Of a stretch of DNA of 64,000 nucleotides, positions 23,052-32,348 are shown piece after piece (positions within the stretch are counted from its first letter, which is position 1; each line of letters starts with the position of its first letter). The notes below the pieces were generated by a model, which was given only the letters and a program-made list of their open reading frames with translations, was not told the origin of the DNA and ran no database searches. The translations under genes were made by a program, and so were the position numbers. Source of the DNA: Roseibium sp. MMSF_3544 (GTDB taxonomy: Bacteria; Pseudomonadota; Alphaproteobacteria; Rhizobiales; Stappiaceae); contig NZ_JASHKA010000002.1 of NCBI RefSeq assembly GCF_030732845.1, positions 1-64,000 on the forward strand. The letters run 5' to 3'.

Positions 23052-23153
23052 TTATCCGGATAAGTGCAGATTTTTTCCCGAACGTCACCAAATTGTCGTA
23101 CCGGTCACGTATCGGAAGGCAACTTATTCGCGCGGGTGACTCGGGAGGAAAGA

Positions 23154-24416
23154 ATGGCGCACAGCACGCTTGAAGCTTCGAAGAAACGGCTCAGAAATGC
23201 GGTGCACCGTTCAGACGCGACTTCCCGTGAAGGAATTCTGGAGCGCCTCTTCACCTTCGCTTTCAAGGGTCTTGTCTATCCCCAGATCTGGGAAGACCCG
23301 GATGTCGACATGAAGGCGCTGCGCCTGACGCCGCAATCCCGGATGATTACGATTGCCTCCGGCGGCTGCAACGTAATGTCCTACCTCACGGCCAATCCTG
23401 CCGAGATCACCGCGGTGGACCTGAACCGGGCGCATGTTGCACTTGGACGTTTGAAACTGGCCGCCGCCAAGCACTTTCCGAACTACGAAGTGTTCTACCG
23501 GTTCTTTGGCGAGGCTGACGAAAAAGCCAATGTGGCGGCCTATCATCGCTTCTTGAAAGACAATCTCGACCCGGAAACCGTGGCCTACTGGGAGGGGCGG
23601 GACGTTGCCAACTGGGGCCGCAAGCGCATCACTCTCTTTTCGCGCGACCTATATCATCACGGCCTGCTCGGCTATTGCATCGGGCTTGGCCACCTCGTAG
23701 CCCGCCTCTACGGGATCGATCCGAAATACATGGTGAAGACCAAGTCCCTTGAGGAGCAGCGCACGTTTTTCGACACCGCCCTGGCGCCGTTGTTCGACAA
23801 ACGACTGGTGCGCTGGGCAACGTCCAAGAAAATGTCTCTCTATGGTCTCGGTATCCCGCCCGCCCAATACGATGCTCTCGTGTCTGCAAATGCGGATGGC
23901 AACATGTCCGCGGTTTTGCGCGACCGCCTGGAAAAGCTGGCCTGTGACTTTTCCATGAAGGAAAACTATTTTGCCTGGCAAGCATTCGGCAGAGGATATG
24001 CCCCGCAAGCCGGAGAAACGACGGGCGAGTCCGGCCCGCTCCCACCCTATCTGAAACGCGCGCATTTTGACGATATTCGCGAACGTGCCGGACGGGTGCG
24101 GGTGCTGAATCGGAACTTCACCGAGCATCTCCAGTCCACCGCCGATGACAGTCTGGATGCCTATGTGCTCCTCGATGCGCAGGACTGGATGACCGATCAC
24201 CAGCTCAATGCGCTCTGGTCTGAAATCACCAGGACGGCTCGTCCCGGTGCCAGGGTCATTTTCCGCACGGCAGCCGAGCCGACGCTCCTGCCGGGCCGTG
24301 TTGCGGACGAGATCCTGGATCGCTGGACGTACGAGGAAGCGGAAAGTCTGGAGCTTGGCCGTCAGGACCGGTCGTCCATTTATGGCGGCTTCCATCTTTA
24401 CGTATTCAACGGCTGA
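23154..24416 (+). CDS. btaA: S-adenosylmethionine:diacylglycerol 3-amino-3-carboxypropyl transferase
   Basis: The 420-residue protein is BtaA (DUF3419), which transfers the 3-amino-3-carboxypropyl group of SAM to diacylglycerol. This is the first step in making the betaine lipid DGTS, used in membranes when phosphate is scarce. The N-terminal part shows VYPQIWEDPDVDMKAL and the SAM-binding ITIASGGCNVMSYL, then EITAVDLNRAH. The ATG at 23154 follows GGGAGGAAAGA; the frame opens earlier (23064) but without similarity. btaB starts 20 bases downstream. A Pho box would be expected upstream; I did not find a convincing one. Confidence 0.93.
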   Translation: MAHSTLEASKKRLRNAVHRSDATSREGILERLFTFAFKGLVYPQIWEDPDVDMKALRLTPQSRMITIASGGCNVMSYLTANPAEITAVDLNRAHVALGRLKLAAAKHFPNYEVFYRFFGEADEKANVAAYHRFLKDNLDPETVAYWEGRDVANWGRKRITLFSRDLYHHGLLGYCIGLGHLVARLYGIDPKYMVKTKSLEEQRTFFDTALAPLFDKRLVRWATSKKMSLYGLGIPPAQYDALVSANADGNMSAVLRDRLEKLACDFSMKENYFAWQAFGRGYAPQAGETTGESGPLPPYLKRAHFDDIRERAGRVRVLNRNFTEHLQSTADDSLDAYVLLDAQDWMTDHQLNALWSEITRTARPGARVIFRTAAEPTLLPGRVADEILDRWTYEEAESLELGRQDRSSIYGGFHLYVFNG

Positions 24417-24436
24417 ACAACGGCTTGGATTTAAGG

Positions 24437-25090
24437 ATGAGCGAAGCTGTCGAAACTGCCCGGCTCATGGACGCCGTCTATCGCCACCAGCGCCACTTTT
24501 ACGATCTCACGCGAAAATACTACCTGCTCGGGCGCGACCATCTGATTGCAGAACTCCAGCCGCCGGTTGGCGGTGCGGTGCTGGAGTTGGGTTGCGGCAC
24601 CGGCAGAAACCTGATCGCAGCCGCGAAAAGATATCCCGACGCCCGCTTTTTCGGCCTCGATATCTCCCGCCACATGCTGGATACGGCGGAAAAGAACATT
24701 TCGAAGGCTGGCCTCACAGAGCGAATTTCCCTGATCGAGGGAGATGCCGCAAATCCGGAGGCCACAAGCGGCCACGGCGTCCCTGCCTTTGACCGGGTTT
24801 TCTACTCCTATACGCTCTCTATGATCCCGATCTGGCGCGAGGCGCTCTCTGCCGGTGCTCTCCGGCTTAAGGACGGAGGGCGTATTCACGTGGTCGATTT
24901 TGGCCAGCAGGGGAACCTGCCCGGATGGTTTAAGAGAATGCTCTTTGCCTGGCTGAAGTCATTCCATGTCACTCCACGGGTCGAGCTTGAAGCGGAGCTT
25001 GTCCGTCTCGCCGGACAGACCGGGGCGGAACTTGACTTCCAGCATCTTTACCGCGGCTACGCTGACTATGCCGAGCTGCGAAAGACATAA
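24437..25090 (+). CDS. btaB: SAM-dependent N-methyltransferase for betaine lipid
   Basis: A 217-residue class I methyltransferase with motif I as VLELGCGTGRNLIAAA near residue 45, followed by FFGLDISRHML (motif II). The N-terminal block RHFYDLTRKYYLLGRDHLI is characteristic of BtaB. That enzyme methylates diacylglycerylhomoserine three times to DGTS. Its place directly behind btaA settles the role. The ATG at 24437 is preferred; an in-frame TTG 12 bases earlier is possible. The gene converges on the large fusion gene, with 51 bases between stops. Confidence 0.9.
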   Translation: MSEAVETARLMDAVYRHQRHFYDLTRKYYLLGRDHLIAELQPPVGGAVLELGCGTGRNLIAAAKRYPDARFFGLDISRHMLDTAEKNISKAGLTERISLIEGDAANPEATSGHGVPAFDRVFYSYTLSMIPIWREALSAGALRLKDGGRIHVVDFGQQGNLPGWFKRMLFAWLKSFHVTPRVELEAELVRLAGQTGAELDFQHLYRGYADYAELRKT

Positions 25091-25141: not shown

Positions 25142-28100
25142 CTAGCTGCATTCAAAATCGTCTCCTTCAAGCGGTCGGCACCGGTCGGGCCAGCCCCGCT
25201 CACGCCAGTAGTCTAGAATGCCGGTTTGTTCTACGAGGAATTTGAACTGCTCTTCTGACCCGACACTGTCGATGACGGTCCATGGAACAGAATAGGAGAC
25301 AGCGGAGCGGCGCAGCGCGAGCGCGTAGTGGAGATAGGCCTTGAGCGCAAGATCCGGTCCACCTATCGCATTAAGCAGCGTGTATCCCATGAAGTTGTCG
25401 TTCTTGTATTCCTCGAAGATATCCTCGGGCGCGTCTTTGCCAATGGAGTTGATCATTTCCATAACTCTGGTCTTCCAGACCGGGTCGCAGTCGTTGCAGG
25501 CGGCGATGAGCGCCCTCAATTCATCGGTTTGGCCTGTCTTTACCATGTAGCCGATCATGGGCCGTGCAATCGGTTCGCGTTGCGGGCTCTTCTCTTCGAA
25601 AAACGCTATCAGCTTCTTGGCGTTCCCCGCGCTCGGGTCTGCCGCCCACTTGGCTTCCAGCTCCCGGAATTGAAAGACGCTGTTGAACGGATCTGCTTGC
25701 GTGGTGTGTTCGGCCATCGCAATCGCCTGCTCATGGCGACCGAGCATCGACAATAACTCCGCGTAGTCCTCCAGCACGTCATATGCATCGGGCACCTGAT
25801 CAAGGGCAGCACGATACATGTCTTCAGCTTCAGACCATTGGCGGTTTCTGCGGAACGTGTTGGCCATTGCATATTGAACCAGTGGGAGTTCCGGATTGAT
25901 GAGATTTGCCCTCAACGCAAACTCCTGCGACCGGGACAACATGAATGCCGTATCGACCCTGCCTTCGTCGTCCGAGACAATGTAGTTCGGGTAAACATTG
26001 TAGACGAGCGAGAGCGCTGCCCAGCCGGCAGCAAAATCCGGATCAAGACTGACGGCTTCGTTCAAAAGGTCGGCAGCTTCCTGCAAAGCCGCACCGCGTT
26101 GCTGGTAGAGGCCCAACCCTTGCAGGAATAGCTCGTAGGCCCTTGCGTTGGACGTGCGTATTTCCATGAGCGCATCTGCCGTGATCTGCAATGGTGTGTT
26201 CAGCGCTTCACCGACTTGCAGGGCAATTTTCTCCTGAATCTGAAACAGGTCTTCCTGCGACTCGTCGAACACGTCCGACCAGATCAGAAACCCGTCGTCT
26301 GCCTCGACAAGCTGCGCTTCGATCCTGAAGTCACCGTCGACGTGACGGACGCTTCCTTCAAGAATGTAATCGACACCCAGCTCCTTTCCGATGACGCGCA
26401 GATCTTCGTTCTTGTCCTTGAAACTGAACGATGAACTCAGGCCGGGCACACGAAACTGACCGGTTCGAGCCAAGGTGCTCATGAGCTCGACCGTCAGGCC
26501 ATCGCTGAAGTTGTCGGACTCATCCATCCGGCTCAGGTTCTTGAACGGCAGGACGGCGATCGACTTGTGATCGTCGCCAATCACGGGCTCGTTCAGGCTC
26601 GGCAGAAAACGACCGTAAATCGGGTTGGCAACGGAGATCGTCAGGATGAGCACGACACCGATGCCGAGAAGGTAGTTGAGCGCGGTTTCCGACTTTGATG
26701 GTGGCGCCTGCTGTCCGAGTTCGGTCGTTCTCTGGAGACCGGTCGGGCTCAGCTCGTAAGCCCAGGCGAGCACGCAGGCAATCGGGAAGCCAAGCGCGAG
26801 AAGCGTCGCAACCAGGCTGTCTGTCCACTCGGGAAGCTTCAGGGTTGATTGCAGAACGAGGGCAACTTGAAGACAGAGCCACGCAACAACAATGTAGCCC
26901 GCCGCGACCTTGACGACGTTGCGCCGCCGCAACTCGTCGAAGAACGAGTGGCGATTGTGATCCTGCTTCGAAAGCGCCTTAGGCGCGGAGACGGGTACAG
27001 CGCGTGCTGTCGTGATGTCGCGGCCAGATGTATTGGAGCGTGAGGTGGCCTGCCGCTTTTCAGGGAGCAGTGCCTGGCTTGTAGTTCGCTCCGGTGCTTC
27101 TGCGCAGCCTATCGAGAAGGACGGGCCGTGCTTAGGCCAGTCGACCCTGTTGAGCTGAAGATAGTCTTTCAGGCTCAAGGCAGCGTAAAGGAAGGCGATC
27201 CGCCGCATGCGCGGGTCGATGTTCTTGTGCGCAAAGTTGAGACCTGCAGCGACCCTTGCAAGAAGACACTGGCTTTCCATGAAAGAAAGCCGATCCGGTT
27301 CGTATGTTTCGATCCAGTCCTTGATGCCGCTTCGAAGGGTGCTCACGATCTCCATGAGACCCAGGTCGTCGGCCTGCAGCCCGCGCGCCGTCTTGTGCCT
27401 GTTGCGGTGGCTCAAGTTTTCGAACAGGCCCTCCCAATACGCGGCGTCCCGGTCTTTTCTGGACATCAGCAGATGCGAGAGTTCGAAATAAGCGTGATCG
27501 AAGAACAGAAACTGGTCCGAGTCGTAGTCTGCAAGATCTATGAGGAAATAGTCCGGGTTCGCCGGGTCTTCCTGTCCGACCAGCAGGTTCATACCGTGTA
27601 AATCACCATGGCTATGGCCTTTGACGGCACGGATATGCAGCCGGTCGTGCAGATCGACAACACCTTCCGCGAAGGCCAGTGGGTTTGGAAACCACTGTCC
27701 CTCGAAAGTGAAGCTCGGATCATGAAAGTCCAGACCGCACTCCTTCGACAAGAAGGTGTGAATACGTCCTCCCGAGCCGGTGACCAACCTGTATCCAAGC
27801 CAGGACGAAAGCAGATCCTGCGGCATATGAATGCCGTCACTGAGCCTGTAGTTCTTGTTCCACTCCGCCAGCAGATCTTTTGACAGATGCCGGATAACGG
27901 GCAGTTGCTTTTCGAACGGGACATCGGGCCAGGGATCAGCATACTCCAGACCACGGCCGGCGATCGTCAGCAAAATGCCGAACTGGTCTCTGTCATGGAA
28001 AGAATAGAGCAATCTTGGAAGATGCTGTCCTGCAAACTCCGGTGAGCTCTCGATGGCCTGCATCAACAGTTCCGGTTCCGGGCGTCCGCCGTGCACCGGG

Positions 28101-28354
28101 TCCCAGGCCTTGTCGAGCTTCAAAATAGCCTGCCCCGTGTAATCTGAGCTGTGGACATCGGCAACCAGAACCTGCGCACCGGACTTGCCGCCACGCAGTT
28201 CGCGGCTCAGGCACATCGTTCCCTCGGCACCCAGCCTCTTCTCTACTTGTGCAAGCAGGCACGAATAGGCCTTTGGCCAGGGCAAGCCTGACTGCAGGGT
28301 CTCTTCCAAAGGGCTGCTTTGCTGACCCAAATTTATGACGTCACTTTCTACCAA
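25142..28354 (-). CDS. Kinase-fold / TolB-like / TPR membrane fusion protein
   Basis: A 1070-residue protein with an unusual order of parts. Residues about 30-390 form an aminoglycoside-phosphotransferase or protein-kinase-like domain: ATP-site Lys in AILKLDKAW (K79), catalytic loop SHGDLHGMNLL (D251, N256) and metal Asp in FLIDLADYDSD (D273). A Ser/Thr-rich linker runs to about 465. FFDELRRRNVVKVAAGYIVV then begins a block with three membrane segments (about 477-503, 512-533, 558-577). Next come a TolB-like domain (about 597-715, SIAVLPFKNLS, DYILEGSVR) and TPR-like helices (about 735-900). The second half is common in proteobacterial adenylate-cyclase-like or CadC-like proteins; fusion to this kinase fold is not familiar to me. 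All three active-site motifs are present, so activity is possible. The upstream 28355-28600 region is AT-rich. The TAG stop lies in a TAGGGTACGGA sequence. Confidence 0.85.
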   Translation of the reverse strand: MVESDVINLGQQSSPLEETLQSGLPWPKAYSCLLAQVEKRLGAEGTMCLSRELRGGKSGAQVLVADVHSSDYTGQAILKLDKAWDPVHGGRPEPELLMQAIESSPEFAGQHLPRLLYSFHDRDQFGILLTIAGRGLEYADPWPDVPFEKQLPVIRHLSKDLLAEWNKNYRLSDGIHMPQDLLSSWLGYRLVTGSGGRIHTFLSKECGLDFHDPSFTFEGQWFPNPLAFAEGVVDLHDRLHIRAVKGHSHGDLHGMNLLVGQEDPANPDYFLIDLADYDSDQFLFFDHAYFELSHLLMSRKDRDAAYWEGLFENLSHRNRHKTARGLQADDLGLMEIVSTLRSGIKDWIETYEPDRLSFMESQCLLARVAAGLNFAHKNIDPRMRRIAFLYAALSLKDYLQLNRVDWPKHGPSFSIGCAEAPERTTSQALLPEKRQATSRSNTSGRDITTARAVPVSAPKALSKQDHNRHSFFDELRRRNVVKVAAGYIVVAWLCLQVALVLQSTLKLPEWTDSLVATLLALGFPIACVLAWAYELSPTGLQRTTELGQQAPPSKSETALNYLLGIGVVLILTISVANPIYGRFLPSLNEPVIGDDHKSIAVLPFKNLSRMDESDNFSDGLTVELMSTLARTGQFRVPGLSSSFSFKDKNEDLRVIGKELGVDYILEGSVRHVDGDFRIEAQLVEADDGFLIWSDVFDESQEDLFQIQEKIALQVGEALNTPLQITADALMEIRTSNARAYELFLQGLGLYQQRGAALQEAADLLNEAVSLDPDFAAGWAALSLVYNVYPNYIVSDDEGRVDTAFMLSRSQEFALRANLINPELPLVQYAMANTFRRNRQWSEAEDMYRAALDQVPDAYDVLEDYAELLSMLGRHEQAIAMAEHTTQADPFNSVFQFRELEAKWAADPSAGNAKKLIAFFEEKSPQREPIARPMIGYMVKTGQTDELRALIAACNDCDPVWKTRVMEMINSIGKDAPEDIFEEYKNDNFMGYTLLNAIGGPDLALKAYLHYALALRRSAVSYSVPWTVIDSVGSEEQFKFLVEQTGILDYWRERGWPDRCRPLEGDDFECS

Positions 28355-28600
28355 CGCTCGACTAGCTCCCGTCTGTCCCCGTGAGATGTCTGATAGATAA
28401 GTGATTTTCGCGAAGTCTGAAGTTAAATTGATGTAATGATAAGATAAAATCGATATTCCAGCGTCAAGGAAAGCAAAATACTTAGGTTTGGAAAATTAAA
28501 CTTGAAAAAGTAATTCTCTATAGGAAAAGTAATGGTGACTAATTGTACAGGCTAAAAAATAGGCGAATCCTTTTGAGGGCGGCATCATGACCTTGCCGAC
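28355..28600. promoter_or_regulatory. AT-rich upstream region of the fusion gene
   Basis: The stretch is clearly poorer in G and C than its surroundings, with runs such as GATAAGATAAAATCGATATT and GAAAATTAAACTTGAAAAAG. It contains no open frame of note and precedes the start of the fusion gene, so it probably holds its promoter. The composition shift may also mark acquired DNA. Confidence 0.4.
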
Positions 28601-28648
28601 CCGCTTAGATCTGGAATCGGCGGTCTTTTGCAATCGCGATTTTGCGGA

Positions 28649-29056
28649 TCAGGCCGAAGCCTGAACCACCATCTCAACTTCAATCTTCAAGTCCGGCGCG
28701 GCCAGTGCGGCAACGCCGATACCGGTAAGGCTCGGCAGCGCGCCTGCCAGAAAGTCCAGAATGAGCGGCATTACCGCTTCCTGCGACTGCGGCGTCAGGT
28801 CGGTCACGTAGATGCGCATGTGAACAATGTCCTCAGGCGTGCTGCCGATTTCTGTCAGTGCATGTCGCAGGTTTTCAATGACAATCTCTGTTTGCTCAAC
28901 AAGCGATGCCGGGACGTCTCCGCCATCGGCCCTCCAGGCGACTTGGCCTGACACAAAGGCCAAACGGCCGGCTTCGGCAACGGAAATCTGGGAATATCCG
29001 ACTTTCCCGGCGTCGGGCAGGCTGTTCGGATTAAGACGCAAGATCGGGGCTGACAT
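28649..29056 (-). CDS. RidA family protein
   Basis: A 135-residue YjgF/YER057c/UK114 (RidA) family member. Such proteins are trimers that hydrolyse reactive enamines and imines to ketoacids and ammonia. The family pattern is visible in AFVSGQVAWRADG, QTEIVIENLRHALTEIGSTPEDIVHMRIYVTD and the C-terminal ALAAPDLKIEVEMVVQA. The usual catalytic Arg near the C-terminus of RidA is not evident (the region reads ALAAPDLKIEVE). This may therefore be one of the Rid subfamilies with another activity. ATG 29056 follows AAGGATGATT; an ATG six bases upstream is too close to it. The LysR-type gene diverges from it. Confidence 0.83.
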   Translation of the reverse strand: MSAPILRLNPNSLPDAGKVGYSQISVAEAGRLAFVSGQVAWRADGGDVPASLVEQTEIVIENLRHALTEIGSTPEDIVHMRIYVTDLTPQSQEAVMPLILDFLAGALPSLTGIGVAALAAPDLKIEVEMVVQASA

Positions 29057-29156
29057 AATCATCCTTTCAAAATGGCAGATTTACGTCACCTGTAGCGCTA
29101 TCATTTGCCGAACTGTATTCGCCTCAATAGCGAACAAATTTCTGCAAAGAGGTTGC

Positions 29157-30089
29157 ATGCTCGGTTCGAAGGTAAATGATATTCTTGTGTTTCTTTCCGT
29201 CGTCGACACTGGAAGTTTCGTGGACGGGGGGAGGGCGTTCGGGCTTTCCCGCTCAACCGCCGGTAAGGCGGTTGCCAGGCTTGAGGACGCCTATGGTGCC
29301 CGCCTTTTGAACCGGACAACACGCGCGCTGGATATGACAGAAGAAGGCCGGAAGCTTTATGAGCACGGTCAAGCAATCCGCGCCGCGATCGAGGAAGCGG
29401 ATCTGAGCCTTTCTGCCGACGCGGGAATTCCGCGCGGGACTTTGCGCATCACCGCGCCAGATGCGGTCGGTCGCCGCATTCTGTTGCCCGTCGTCCGGCG
29501 TTTTCTGGAAAAGTGGCCGCAAATGCGGGTTGAAATCGGGTTTTCAGACCGCGTGGACAACATGATCGAGAAAGGGTTCGATCTTGCAATCAGGGTCGGT
29601 GTCACATCACCTGGTCAAGGTTTTATTTCAAGAACGCTGCTGACCGACGTGCCGGTGCTTTGCGCTGCGCCGGCCTATTTTGAAGGCGGCGGACGTCCTT
29701 TGCGTGCTGAACAACTGGACGCATTTGATCTTCTTCTGTTTGGCGACCAAGGCAAAAATCAGGGATGGCGCATCAGGGACGAAGGCGGCCCCTGGATCCG
29801 CCTGCAGGGTCATGCGCGTTTGAAGCTCGACAGCGCCGAAGCGCTGCGTGAGGCTGCTCTTGCTGGATTGGGAATCGCCTTGCTGCCCCGGCTCGTCGTT
29901 GAAGAAGACCTTGCAGCGGGCCGACTTGAACAGGTATTGCCGCTGGCCGAGTGCGGCTCTGTCCCGATCATCGCGCTTTATCCGCACAAACGGCTGCTCG
30001 AACCGCGTGTCCGGCGCTTCATCGACATGCTGGCGGAGCACCTCAATCGAAATGGTTCGTCCTGCGGTAATGGTAATCGACCGCCTTAA
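29157..30089 (+). CDS. LysR family transcriptional regulator
   Basis: A 310-residue LysR-type regulator with an N-terminal winged helix-turn-helix (ILVFLSVVDTGSFVDGGRAF, LSRSTAGKAVARLEDAYGAR, LLNRTTRALDMTEEG). The C-terminal substrate-binding fold resembles the CrgA/PA2220 group. The frame opens as far back as 28827, but ATG 29157, preceded by AAAGAGGTTGC, gives the canonical N-terminus. It is divergent from the RidA gene over a 100-base spacer, so RidA is the likely target and an enamine- or imine-forming compound the likely signal. Its stop overlaps the end of the next, convergent gene by 4 bases. Confidence 0.9.
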   Translation: MLGSKVNDILVFLSVVDTGSFVDGGRAFGLSRSTAGKAVARLEDAYGARLLNRTTRALDMTEEGRKLYEHGQAIRAAIEEADLSLSADAGIPRGTLRITAPDAVGRRILLPVVRRFLEKWPQMRVEIGFSDRVDNMIEKGFDLAIRVGVTSPGQGFISRTLLTDVPVLCAAPAYFEGGGRPLRAEQLDAFDLLLFGDQGKNQGWRIRDEGGPWIRLQGHARLKLDSAEALREAALAGLGIALLPRLVVEEDLAAGRLEQVLPLAECGSVPIIALYPHKRLLEPRVRRFIDMLAEHLNRNGSSCGNGNRPP

Positions 30090-30958
30090 ACCTTTGTCAC
30101 CAGAGCCTTGAGAGCCGTTTGATGAAGGAGGGAGGCAGCGTCCTCCGGCGAGACCCATCTCCTGGTCCGGTGCTTTTCCTCCCAGGCGTCATCGGGGAGG
30201 ATTTCGGTGACTTCCATCGAATAAACCGTTACTTCGCAGGTCGCGCCCCACTTCTCATATGCATAGGTCCCAAGGGGCGCGGTGCCGACAGTCCCCTTAA
30301 CGCCTGCTTCCTCCAGTGCTTCATTCATGGCTGATGCGGCAGGACCGAGCCCCGGTTCGACAATTCCCTTGGGAACGACCCAGCGGCTGCCGCCGCTCGA
30401 CCCGACGATGAGAATTTCAGTACCGCCACCTGTCCGGCGAAAAGGCACGACAGAAGACTGGGTGTAGTAATACGCCGGCCGTTCTCGCTGATCGGAACCG
30501 TTGGGGGTGGGATAAGGAAAGAGGTCAGGCAGATCTTTCGGGTCGACACGTTTGACAAGACGTGTGTCGCCATTTTCTTGCGAAAGCCAAAGGAAAACGC
30601 CAGGTCCGGGATCCGCATCAAGCCCCATTTTCCGCAAGACTTCCCGGAGTTGCCCGGCAAGTCCGACCAGAAGGGGCCTGCCTTCTTTTGGCAATTCGGG
30701 AACATGCCCGTCGGAAAGCTCCGCCGACAGTGTGATGTTGCGAGCCGTCCAGCCTGCAGCCTTAAGGGCCTTTTCGGCAGTCACCTGCGCGCGCAGCGCA
30801 CTGGTGGTAATTGTCATGTCCGGCTTGAGGCCGTTCCCCGCCATCCAGGTGCCGATTTTCTGCGCCTGACGCTTTCCCTTGTTCCGCAAGGGCCGGTCGA
30901 TGTCCGGGCCGTTCCACGATTTCATCGCAGCGCCGGCGCACAGCATCAAAAGCTCCAT
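30086..30958 (-). CDS. Degenerate histidine-phosphatase / NUDIX two-domain protein
   Basis: The 290-residue protein joins an N-terminal SixA-like histidine phosphatase domain (about 1-150) to a C-terminal NUDIX domain (about 150-290). In the first domain the Arg-His-Gly that carries the catalytic His is replaced by MLCAGAA. The rest of the pattern (LRNKGKRQAQKIGTWM, ITTSALRAQVTAEKAL, SDGHVPEL) remains. The NUDIX box is also off-consensus: PKGIVEPGLGPAASAMNEAL followed by EEAG, with Arg-Glu changed to Asn-Glu and an expected Glu replaced. The relatives that fuse these domains (mycobacterial MutT1-like) have the NUDIX part first. The ATG at 30958 follows GGGAGGCATCT; the longer frame to 31114 has no similarity. 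Confidence 0.75.
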   Translation of the reverse strand: MELLMLCAGAAMKSWNGPDIDRPLRNKGKRQAQKIGTWMAGNGLKPDMTITTSALRAQVTAEKALKAAGWTARNITLSAELSDGHVPELPKEGRPLLVGLAGQLREVLRKMGLDADPGPGVFLWLSQENGDTRLVKRVDPKDLPDLFPYPTPNGSDQRERPAYYYTQSSVVPFRRTGGGTEILIVGSSGGSRWVVPKGIVEPGLGPAASAMNEALEEAGVKGTVGTAPLGTYAYEKWGATCEVTVYSMEVTEILPDDAWEEKHRTRRWVSPEDAASLLHQTALKALVTKV

Positions 30959-31097
30959 AGATGCCTCCCGACAGTCATCGGGCGATGATCGTGCGCCCAC
31001 CAGATCCTGACGTCTGTTAACACCGAAAGCATATCCAAGCCGATGGCGGCTGTCACAAGACGGTCGCCAACAAGAAACACTCGCCGAGACAGCCGGG

Positions 31098-31550
31098 TCA
31101 GCGCATGTCCTCAATCATTGCACGGGCCTCGCTTCGGCACGTCGTGCTGACGTTGTTTGACCATGCATAAATGCAGGCCAGTAATCGCCCCTTGCCAGGC
31201 GCAACGCTCCTGCAATGGGTCCTGATATCCGATGCGCAGACCTGTTTCAGTTTGGCTTCATCAACCCGGACGGTCCCGCTGCGCGCGCCTGCTGGGACCT
31301 TGGGTTCAAAGGCCATTCTTTTTGCAACTTTCGTGACTTCCGGTTTGCATGCCGGCGAGATTCTGTTGCCGTGCGCAAAAAGGCACGCGGAAATGCGTCC
31401 ACGCCCCTCCCGCACGCCCTTGCAAAGGGAGGCGATATCCGGCGAGCACGCGGTCATGAGCGAGCTGGCCTGAGCGGGGGAGCTGTTACCTGTTGTCGTT
31501 GCGCCGGCAAGGGCCATGGCGAACATGGCAGACGTGATCTTTTTGCCCAT
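31098..31550 (-). CDS. Exported cysteine-rich repeat protein
   Basis: A 150-residue protein with a signal peptide (cleavage probable near QAS-SL). It has two copies of a Cys-rich repeat like that of eukaryotic GLG1/FGF-receptor Cys-rich proteins: ACSPDIASLCKGVREGRGRI with further Cys, and VCASDIRTHCRSVAPGKGRL with further Cys. Each repeat has four cysteines, so two disulfides per repeat are likely in the periplasm. Function is unknown; such proteins are widespread in rhizobia-like bacteria. The ATG at 31548-31550 has GGAG at a good distance; an ATG nine bases upstream sits on the ribosome-binding site. Confidence 0.8.
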   Translation of the reverse strand: MGKKITSAMFAMALAGATTTGNSSPAQASSLMTACSPDIASLCKGVREGRGRISACLFAHGNRISPACKPEVTKVAKRMAFEPKVPAGARSGTVRVDEAKLKQVCASDIRTHCRSVAPGKGRLLACIYAWSNNVSTTCRSEARAMIEDMR

Positions 31551-31670: not shown

Positions 31671-32348
31671 TCAGTCGCCTGCCACAAAGTAATGCAGGGT
31701 TCCATCGGGACCGATGCCGACACGATAAAACGTCCAGGCACCGAATTCTTCCATTTCGGCATAGTCGCCCGCGGTAATGATCCGGTACATTTCGACCTTC
31801 TGGTCCGGCGTCAGGTCTTGAAGCGGATAGCGGGCAAAATACGGCCACACATACATCTCTTGCGGCGTCCCGACATCGACATGCAGGAAGCCTGCGTCCA
31901 GCGTGTCCGCCAGTATCGCCAGGATCTCGAAACCCTCGCCGTCGCCTGAACTCTGTTTCAGAAAATCGATCGGATCATCGATGTCGCCGAATGAAAGTGT
32001 TGGCGGCAGCTCGTTGCTCTCAAGCACCATGCGCATCCGCTTCATGTCGCCCAGAAGGGCAGCTTCACGAAGTTGCGCGTGCATGCGCGCCACGGGCTTC
32101 GGCAAAACGGAGGTATTGTAGAGAACCTGGGGTGCAGCAAGGTCGGCAGGGGCGGCAGCCTTGTTGCCAGCCGGTGTTGCCGGTTCATCGCTGCTTTGCG
32201 GAACAGACAGTTGATCGTCCGGTATCGGCGCGGATTGCTGGGTCGGCTCTGGACCAATCGGGATGGTTTCCGTCGTGACGTTCTTGGCCAGGCCGACTGC
32301 CGGAAAGAGACAGAAAACCAGAACCGCCGCCGTTTTTGTCCGTCCCAT
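31671..32348 (-). CDS. Conserved hypothetical exported protein
   Basis: I do not recognise this 225-residue protein by name. It has an N-terminal signal peptide (cleavage near GLA-KN), a Pro/Ala/Gln-rich linker of about 50 residues, and a folded C-terminal part of about 145 residues with ankyrin-like helices: QLREAALLGDMKRMRMVLES and GEGFEILAILADTLDAGFLH. It ends in an aromatic block, AWTFYRVGIGPDGTLHYFVA. The build suggests a periplasmic protein, perhaps with a binding role. It has its own upstream region of about 180 bases shared with the divergent LysE gene. Confidence 0.75.
   Translation of the reverse strand: MGRTKTAAVLVFCLFPAVGLAKNVTTETIPIGPEPTQQSAPIPDDQLSVPQSSDEPATPAGNKAAAPADLAAPQVLYNTSVLPKPVARMHAQLREAALLGDMKRMRMVLESNELPPTLSFGDIDDPIDFLKQSSGDGEGFEILAILADTLDAGFLHVDVGTPQEMYVWPYFARYPLQDLTPDQKVEMYRIITAGDYAEMEEFGAWTFYRVGIGPDGTLHYFVAGD

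What the first reader, a model, noticed from the sequence alone, without database searches (positions are those of the whole stretch)
25142..28354. Kinase-fold domain fused to a membrane-anchored TolB-like/TPR protein
Seen: one continuous 1070-residue frame with an ATP-site Lys (AILKLDKAW), catalytic loop (SHGDLHGMNLL) and metal Asp (LIDLADY), then three membrane segments, a TolB-like domain and TPR helices. Known: the second half is a common proteobacterial architecture that usually carries a DNA-binding or adenylate-cyclase domain in place of the kinase part, and kinase-like TCAD9 domains occur in conflict-system proteins. Inference: a signalling protein in which a phosphotransferase output or input replaces the usual partner. 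The N-terminal GGKSGAQVLV and AILKLDKAW are consistent with a TCAD9-type pseudokinase, but the active-site residues look intact. The AT-rich upstream region and the lack of operon partners hint at acquisition.
Basis: partly seen in the sequence, partly recalled or inferred. Interest (0 to 1): 0.75.

Follow-up and report, generated by a model that had tools for sequence, protein, structure and literature searches.

The report
Membrane-anchored APH-like kinase with TolB/TPR sensor
A marine bacterium carries a rare protein that joins an apparently intact small-molecule-type kinase to a membrane-anchored sensor half that related proteins usually join to DNA-binding or cyclic-nucleotide-making domains, so it looks like a sensor with a phosphorylating output.

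Summary
One 1070-residue frame lies on the MINUS strand (25142-28354): an N-terminal APH-like kinase domain, three hydrophobic segments, a TolB-like domain and TPR repeats.

The kinase domain belongs to the wider TCAD9/APH relationship. All 9 members scanned as domains match TCAD9. The window copy scores below Pfam's cut-off (30.6-34 versus 40 bits); a 30%-identical homologue scores above it (47.7). The putative ATP-site Lys, HxDxHxxN loop and metal Asp are present in 11 of 11 homologues, so "pseudokinase" is not supported.

The kinase-TolB-TPR fusion is rare: 8 genomes found, all in the same class, with no, one or three hydrophobic segments. Their TolB domains reject a single origin (p-AU 0.0003; 0.055 in an earlier test with fewer rows), which suggests related kinases joined to several sensor lineages. 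More distant homologues carry weak NTPase-like or trypsin-like matches instead.

Best reading: a sensor-regulated phosphotransferase with the kinase as output. Ligand and substrate are unknown. A Hanks-kinase-TolB-TPR protein also exists, so this is a new variant of a known kind. Both structure predictions failed (mean pLDDT 37 and 33), so the fold rests on sequence.

The parts
25142..28354 (-). whole gene, 1070 aa, TTG start at 28354
   Evidence: open frame; start position and upstream GGGAG shared with two orthologues
27110..28285 (-). APH/TCAD9-like kinase domain, residues about 24-415
   Evidence: profiles A2/A5, Pfam TCAD9 (below cut-off) and hhalign to APH
28175..28192 (-). glycine-rich ATP-loop motif GGKSGA, residues 55-60 (G56, S58, G59 in 11 of 11 homologues; K57 in 8 of 11)
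28118..28120 (-). Lys79, putative ATP-binding Lys, 11 of 11
27587..27610 (-). catalytic loop HGDLHGMN, residues 249-256; H249, D251, H253, N256 in 11 of 11
27524..27541 (-). putative metal-binding motif IDLADY, residues 272-277; D273 in 11 of 11
26948..27109 (-). fast-evolving linker, residues 416-469
   Evidence: gapped and variable in alignment; higher dN
26852..26908 (-). hydrophobic segment 1, residues 483-501
   Evidence: hydropathy 2.33
26759..26815 (-). hydrophobic segment 2, residues 514-532
   Evidence: hydropathy 2.24
26627..26683 (-). hydrophobic segment 3, residues 558-576
   Evidence: hydropathy 2.19
26006..26563 (-). TolB-like domain, residues 598-783
25679..25879 (-). TPR repeats, residues about 826-892; the rest of the C-terminus has no clear family hit
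28355..28648 (-). AT-rich leader (41.2% GC) with GGGAG 11 bases before the TTG
28649..29062 (-). RidA-family gene (PF01042), same direction; next to the kinase gene in the 3 genomes that have the kinase at this site

Best explanation
A signal-transducing phosphotransferase. The N-terminal APH/TCAD9-type kinase, with an intact-looking active site, is the cytoplasmic output. The TolB-like plus TPR half is the sensor, held outside the inner membrane by three segments in this protein. A ligand, peptide or envelope state sensed by the TolB/TPR half would change the conformation or clustering of the protein, switch the kinase on, and lead it to phosphorylate a cytoplasmic small molecule or protein. 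Shown by sequence: domain order, conserved active-site residues, purifying selection, rarity in the draws searched, and TolB halves of different lineages joined to related kinases. Inferred: catalysis, membrane topology (hydropathy, with an Arg-rich stretch before segment 1), the kinase as output rather than input, and regulation. Unknown: ligand, substrate and cell response.
For: Active-site residues conserved in 11 of 11 homologues, three of them only 24-30% identical to the window copy. The N-terminal slot before TolB/TPR holds a wHTH, a cyclase or both in 16 of 20 proteins scanned and a Hanks protein kinase in 1 of 20, that is, output domains. The sensor half varies: TolB domains of the 8 kinase proteins reject one clade (p-AU 0.000265; 0.055 with 6 rows), and the TolB of G1006/G1065 groups with the TolB of a cyclase in G139 (100/99). 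Versions with 0, 1 and 3 hydrophobic segments exist. Low dN/dS in both halves.
Against: No catalytic data, and structure predictions are uninformative (mean pLDDT 37.3 and 33.3), so the kinase fold rests on sequence profiles. The Pfam cut-offs for TCAD9 and APH are not reached by the window copy. Three family members have no hydrophobic segment, so their TolB half would be cytoplasmic, which sits badly with a purely periplasmic sensing role. In the kinase-domain tree the eight TolB-borne kinases are not resolved as one clade (open fork, long-branch warning), so 'one kinase lineage' is not proved. Several TolB rows have long branches. The 11 homologues were found with profiles, which favours intact motifs. 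G1065 lacks the otherwise conserved E291.
Confidence: 0.55

Rival explanations
1. Conflict (immune or abortive) effector: the TolB/TPR half senses invasion or envelope damage and the kinase then modifies a vital host molecule or invader component. Mechanically like the best explanation, but the response is defence.
For: Related kinase domains are fused to a region with a weak STAND-NTPase match (G577 scanned; G581 similar by eye) and to one with a weak trypsin-like match beside an FGE-sulfatase gene (G478); a G577 neighbour matches a PADLOC defence-candidate model; the G581 neighbour looks like a type I restriction subunit by eye only. The same genome has a caspase-TCAD9-like gene. Patchy distribution.
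Against: No PADLOC hit for the 4 kinase-TolB proteins scanned, nor for the G577 and G478 kinase proteins. The six window neighbours scanned are ordinary families. No phage match better than E 7 and none in viral contigs.
Confidence: 0.25
2. The kinase domain is a nucleotide-binding scaffold or input without phosphotransfer, and the membrane/TPR half is the working part.
For: Most S/T/Y kinase domains in VMAP systems are reported as disrupted (PMC7159879, passages); no activity shown here.
Against: The catalytic positions are invariant in 11 of 11; the same paper calls a few APH-type versions active (passages).
Confidence: 0.12
3. A metabolic small-molecule kinase placed at the membrane; the TolB/TPR half is only an anchor. 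The neighbours at this site, DUF3419 (BtaA-like) and methyltransferase (BtaB-like) genes, would hint at lipid head groups.
For: APH-like family; adjacency to these genes in 3 genomes.
Against: Neighbours differ for the other kinase-TolB genes, and the BtaB-like gene is present in 45 of 45 genus genomes while the kinase is in 4.
Confidence: 0.08

Closest known systems
[quoted passage not shown]
   Same: same motifs; 9 of 9 family members scanned as domains match at E <= 0.01; homologue G577 is over the cut-off with 47.7 bits
   Different: window copy is below the cut-off; no vWA-MoxR-VMAP partners seen among six neighbours; fused to TolB/TPR
APH phosphotransferase family (PF01636)
   Same: HxDxHxxN and ID motifs; hhalign 87.7% over the catalytic loop
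   Different: no or marginal Pfam scores; about 400 residues with its own conserved positions after the catalytic loop; part of a receptor-like protein
wHTH-TolB-TPR (CadC-like) and class III cyclase-TolB-TPR proteins
   Same: homologous TolB/TPR half with a domain N-terminal to it
   Different: N-terminal domain is an APH/TCAD9-like kinase
Hanks-type kinase-TolB-TPR protein (L029, Latescibacterota MAG)
   Same: kinase N-terminal to TolB-like and TPR parts
   Different: classical Pkinase domain (PF00069), to which the window protein gives no hit; no hydrophobic segment over the threshold used
Membrane-TolB proteins without an enzyme domain (L028, L065, L066)
   Same: homologous membrane module beginning ELKRR, and a TolB-like domain; TPR by Pfam in L028, L065 and L066 not scanned
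   Different: no N-terminal enzyme domain seen; L065 and L066 were held only in part

Membership tests
TCAD9 (PF19974) | score over the Pfam gathering cut-off (40 bits) | tested here: not met
   window copy 30.6-34 bits; homologue G577 47.7; full-length G478 listed no TCAD9 at E <= 0.1, though its domain alone did at E <= 0.01
TCAD9 (PF19974) | association with vWA-MoxR-VMAP components | tested here: not met
   six neighbouring genes give other families
APH (PF01636) | HxDxHxxN loop, metal Asp and ATP-site Lys | tested here: met
   11 of 11 homologues; roles of the residues by recalled analogy
APH (PF01636) | score over the Pfam cut-off (23.2 bits) | tested here: not met
   no hit for the window domain; homologues 12.2-20.1 bits where bits were shown
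APH / protein-kinase fold | kinase fold | tested here: inconclusive
   AlphaFold2 models with mean pLDDT 37.3 and 33.3; no significant kinase among solved structures by sequence, one Ser/Thr kinase chain at E 0.46 over profile positions 232-265
Hanks-type Ser/Thr kinase (PF00069) | Pkinase match | tested here: not met
   none listed for the domain at E <= 10 (HMMER's filters drop most matches above about 0.1)
TolB-like/TPR sensor proteins | homology to TolB-like and TPR parts of CadC-like and cyclase proteins | tested here: met
   E 8.2e-31 to L002, whose TolB_N is over the cut-off; TPR hits; Pfam TolB_N itself not hit by the window protein
Transmembrane receptor | periplasmic sensor, cytoplasmic kinase | not testable with these tools
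   hydropathy only
Transmembrane receptor kinase | phosphotransfer activity controlled by the sensor | not testable with these tools
   needs biochemistry

The most novel reading that the evidence does not exclude
A distinct class of bacterial receptor phosphotransferases, in which an active APH/TCAD9-type kinase from the conflict-system world has been placed several times under different TolB/TPR sensor halves and transmits an envelope or cytoplasmic signal by phosphorylating a small molecule that serves as a messenger.
Probability: 0.15. Interest if true: 0.8.

Novelty: new variant of a known kind. Interest (0 to 1): 0.5.

Why it matters
It links two groups that are usually treated apart: TCAD9/APH-like kinases of conflict systems and the TolB/TPR signalling proteins. 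If the kinase is active and controlled by the sensor half, it would be a membrane receptor whose output is APH-type phosphorylation. Naturally occurring sensor differences on related kinases would make it testable which half sets the input. It would also give a handle on what TCAD9 domains do, which the passages seen here leave open.

Tried and rejected
No fold search was run on them because the matches would be meaningless. Solved structures by sequence: the full protein hit only TPR proteins and weak unrelated chains. The kinase profiles gave no significant kinase: one chain named serine/threonine protein kinase at E 0.46 over profile positions 232-265, and better-scoring hits to translation elongation factor 1 epsilon-1 (E 0.0075 over 66 positions), which I take as chance.

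Phage or viral origin: tblastn in phages gave only E 7-9 hits, and viral contigs gave none. Known defence family: no PADLOC hit for the four kinase-TolB proteins scanned. Operon with btaAB or RidA: adjacency is limited to 3 related genomes, so it is not used as a functional clue. Foreign base composition of the gene: not seen.

Single origin of the kinase-TolB fusion: with 6 kinase rows the AU test did not reject it at 0.05 (p 0.055). After two more members were found, and one further cyclase row (the Ruegeria plasmid neighbour, a long branch) was added, it did (p 0.000265). The kinase-domain tree of 11 rows does not resolve the TolB-borne kinases as one clade. Partner labels: of the 25 TolB proteins extracted, 20 were scanned with Pfam; L022-L026 were not. 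L018, L022 and L023 are called cyclase in the trees by eye only; L007 and L024-L026 were left out of both trees. The G475 match is short and holds two stops; it was left out of the list of members. The full-length G478 protein listed no TCAD9 match at E <= 0.1, although its domain alone matched.

Literature: searches for TCAD9, ternary complex associated domain, TolB-like with kinase and cyclase terms, and APH kinase with TolB and TPR (the last listed 15 of 178) showed no description of this architecture in the open-access library. Subscription papers were not searched.

Full report
Observation. The interval 25142-28354 holds one 1070-codon frame, on the minus strand, beginning with TTG at 28354. 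The start is supported by two orthologues whose first start codon is TTG at the matching place and which share the GGGAG site 11 bases upstream. The kinase motifs, three hydrophobic segments, TolB-like region and TPR repeats are all present. The upstream leader has 41.2% GC, the gene 56.9% and the window 58.0%.

Relatives. Full-length orthologues with 70-71% identity occur in G024 and in Roseibium sp. isolate 2-83 (L027; the same contig appears as G451, judged from contig length). A profile of the kinase domain matched 4 of 45 genomes of the genus, 2 of 385 in a draw from the class, 3 of 397 in a draw from the order and 5 of 398 in a draw from the phylum, where G475 is a short match with stops. 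Each count includes the window's own genome, the draws overlap, and cut-offs differed (1e-6, 1e-10, 1e-5 and 1e-6). A Ruegeria sp. SCSIO 43209 plasmid carries another, annotated 'phosphotransferase'. In all, 8 genomes carry kinase-TolB-TPR: three with three hydrophobic segments (window, G024, L027), two with one (G1006, G1065) and three with none (G023, Ruegeria, G139). Three more carry the kinase on other partners: G577 with a region that weakly matches nSTAND_NTPase5 (25.0 bits, cut-off 34) and weak TPR hits, G581 similar by eye (not scanned), and G478 with a weak Trypsin_2 match (19.2 bits, cut-off 27.6).

What the N-terminal domain is. Pfam gives TCAD9 for 9 of 9 members at E <= 0.01 and APH for 5 of 9 when the domains are scanned alone; the full-length G478 protein listed APH but no TCAD9 at E <= 0.1. 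G1006 and G1065, found later, also match TCAD9, below its cut-off. The window copy is below the TCAD9 cut-off, while G577, 30% identical to it over the domain, is above it. Profile comparison with eight APH-type proteins of the same genome gives 87.7% probability over 46 columns around the catalytic loop; a cyclase-TolB control gives 0.2%. G56, S58, G59, K79, E93, H249, D251, H253, N256, D273, D286, R341 and W347 are identical in 11 of 11; E291 is in 10 of 11 and K57 in 8 of 11. The roles given to these residues (ATP-site Lys, catalytic and metal Asp) are assigned by recalled analogy with APH and protein kinases. AlphaFold2 gave no usable model.

What the C-terminal half is. Of 20 TolB-type proteins scanned, picked by similarity to the query, 7 had a wHTH (Trans_reg_C), 7 a class III cyclase, 2 both, 1 a Hanks kinase and 3 no N-terminal family at E <= 0.001. 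The membrane module itself is rare in the phylum draw (3 of 299 genomes at E <= 1e-6, own genome included); it occurs without an enzyme domain in L065, L066 and L028, and after a wHTH-like region (by eye) in L067. A TolB-domain tree puts the window's TolB with such proteins and with L029 (unstarred branches), the G023/Ruegeria TolB elsewhere, and the G1006/G1065 TolB with a cyclase of G139 (100/99). One clade for all kinase-borne TolB domains is rejected (p-AU 0.000265, 8 rows against 25); the earlier test with 6 rows against 24 did not reject it at 0.05 (p 0.055). Several rows have long branches, so the number of origins is uncertain. The kinase-domain tree of 11 rows leaves the relations among the TolB-borne kinases open, with a long-branch warning.

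Locus. In the three genus genomes with the three-segment form, LysR, RidA and the kinase lie together beside the BtaB/BtaA-like genes. All 45 genus genomes have the BtaB-like gene, 15 have a RidA match at E <= 1e-15, and only these three have it at this place. I looked at the site in 7 further genomes (15 kb each); none shows the kinase there. In G035 the orthologue of the window gene at 31671-32348 lies next to the place where one search puts the BtaB-like gene, which looks like an empty site. The G023 copy abuts an IS630-like transposase gene. This favours gain at different places; loss cannot be excluded.

Mechanism. The kinase stands in the place that output domains take in related TolB/TPR proteins, its active-site residues are intact, both halves are under purifying selection (dN/dS about 0.08 and 0.06 between L008 and L027; dS is saturated for pairs with the window), and different TolB lineages are joined to related kinases. 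I infer a sensor-controlled phosphotransferase, kinase inside, TolB/TPR outside in this form. The versions without hydrophobic segments suggest that sensing may also be cytoplasmic. Ligand and substrate are unknown. A conflict role is a serious rival because of the TCAD9 link and the partners of distant homologues.

Literature seen. PMC7159879 (passages) describes vWA-MoxR-VMAP conflict systems, reports most of their S/T/Y kinase domains as disrupted, and mentions a few active APH-type kinases that might act on low-molecular-weight substrates; the word TCAD9 does not occur in it. PMC8195603 (passages) lists small-molecule kinases related to aminoglycoside kinases among effectors. PMC10910872 (one passage) names TCAD9 as associated with vWA-MoxR-VMAP. 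PMC1262709 (passages) describes Hanks kinases with TPR repeats and does not contain the word TolB. None of the passages seen describes a TCAD9/APH kinase with TolB/TPR; searches.

Verdict. It is a new variant of a known kind: known modules in a rare combination, with evidence for repeated sensor exchange.

Noticed in passing
L056 4410-6884 (own genome, contig C9): An 824-aa gene joins a caspase domain (PF00656, E 9e-11) to a TCAD9-like kinase (below cut-off) with HGDMHQKN and LIDFEN motifs; nearby are a gene that looks like a resolvase and a second one that looks caspase-like, both by eye, as in a defence island.
   Followed up: partly
L048 1706-5023: A STAND-like NTPase-TPR gene with an N-terminal match to PADLOC candidate PDC-M54A lies just upstream of the kinase-NTPase-like gene.
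   Followed up: partly
L050 1331-8537: A kinase gene with a weak trypsin-like match lies beside a gene with two FGE-sulfatase stretches, reminiscent of VMAP-type systems.
   Followed up: partly
L052 6510-11329: A cyclase-like TolB gene and a kinase-TolB gene are divergent neighbours (cyclase by eye); an annotated cyclase gene is also the third gene downstream of the Ruegeria kinase.
   Followed up: partly
window 23064-25090: DUF3419 (BtaA-like) and methyltransferase (BtaB-like) genes, probably for betaine lipids by recall, convergent with the finding; BtaB-like gene in 45 of 45 genus genomes.
   Followed up: partly
window 30086-31114: A gene that joins a histidine-phosphatase-like domain to a NUDIX domain.
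   Followed up: no
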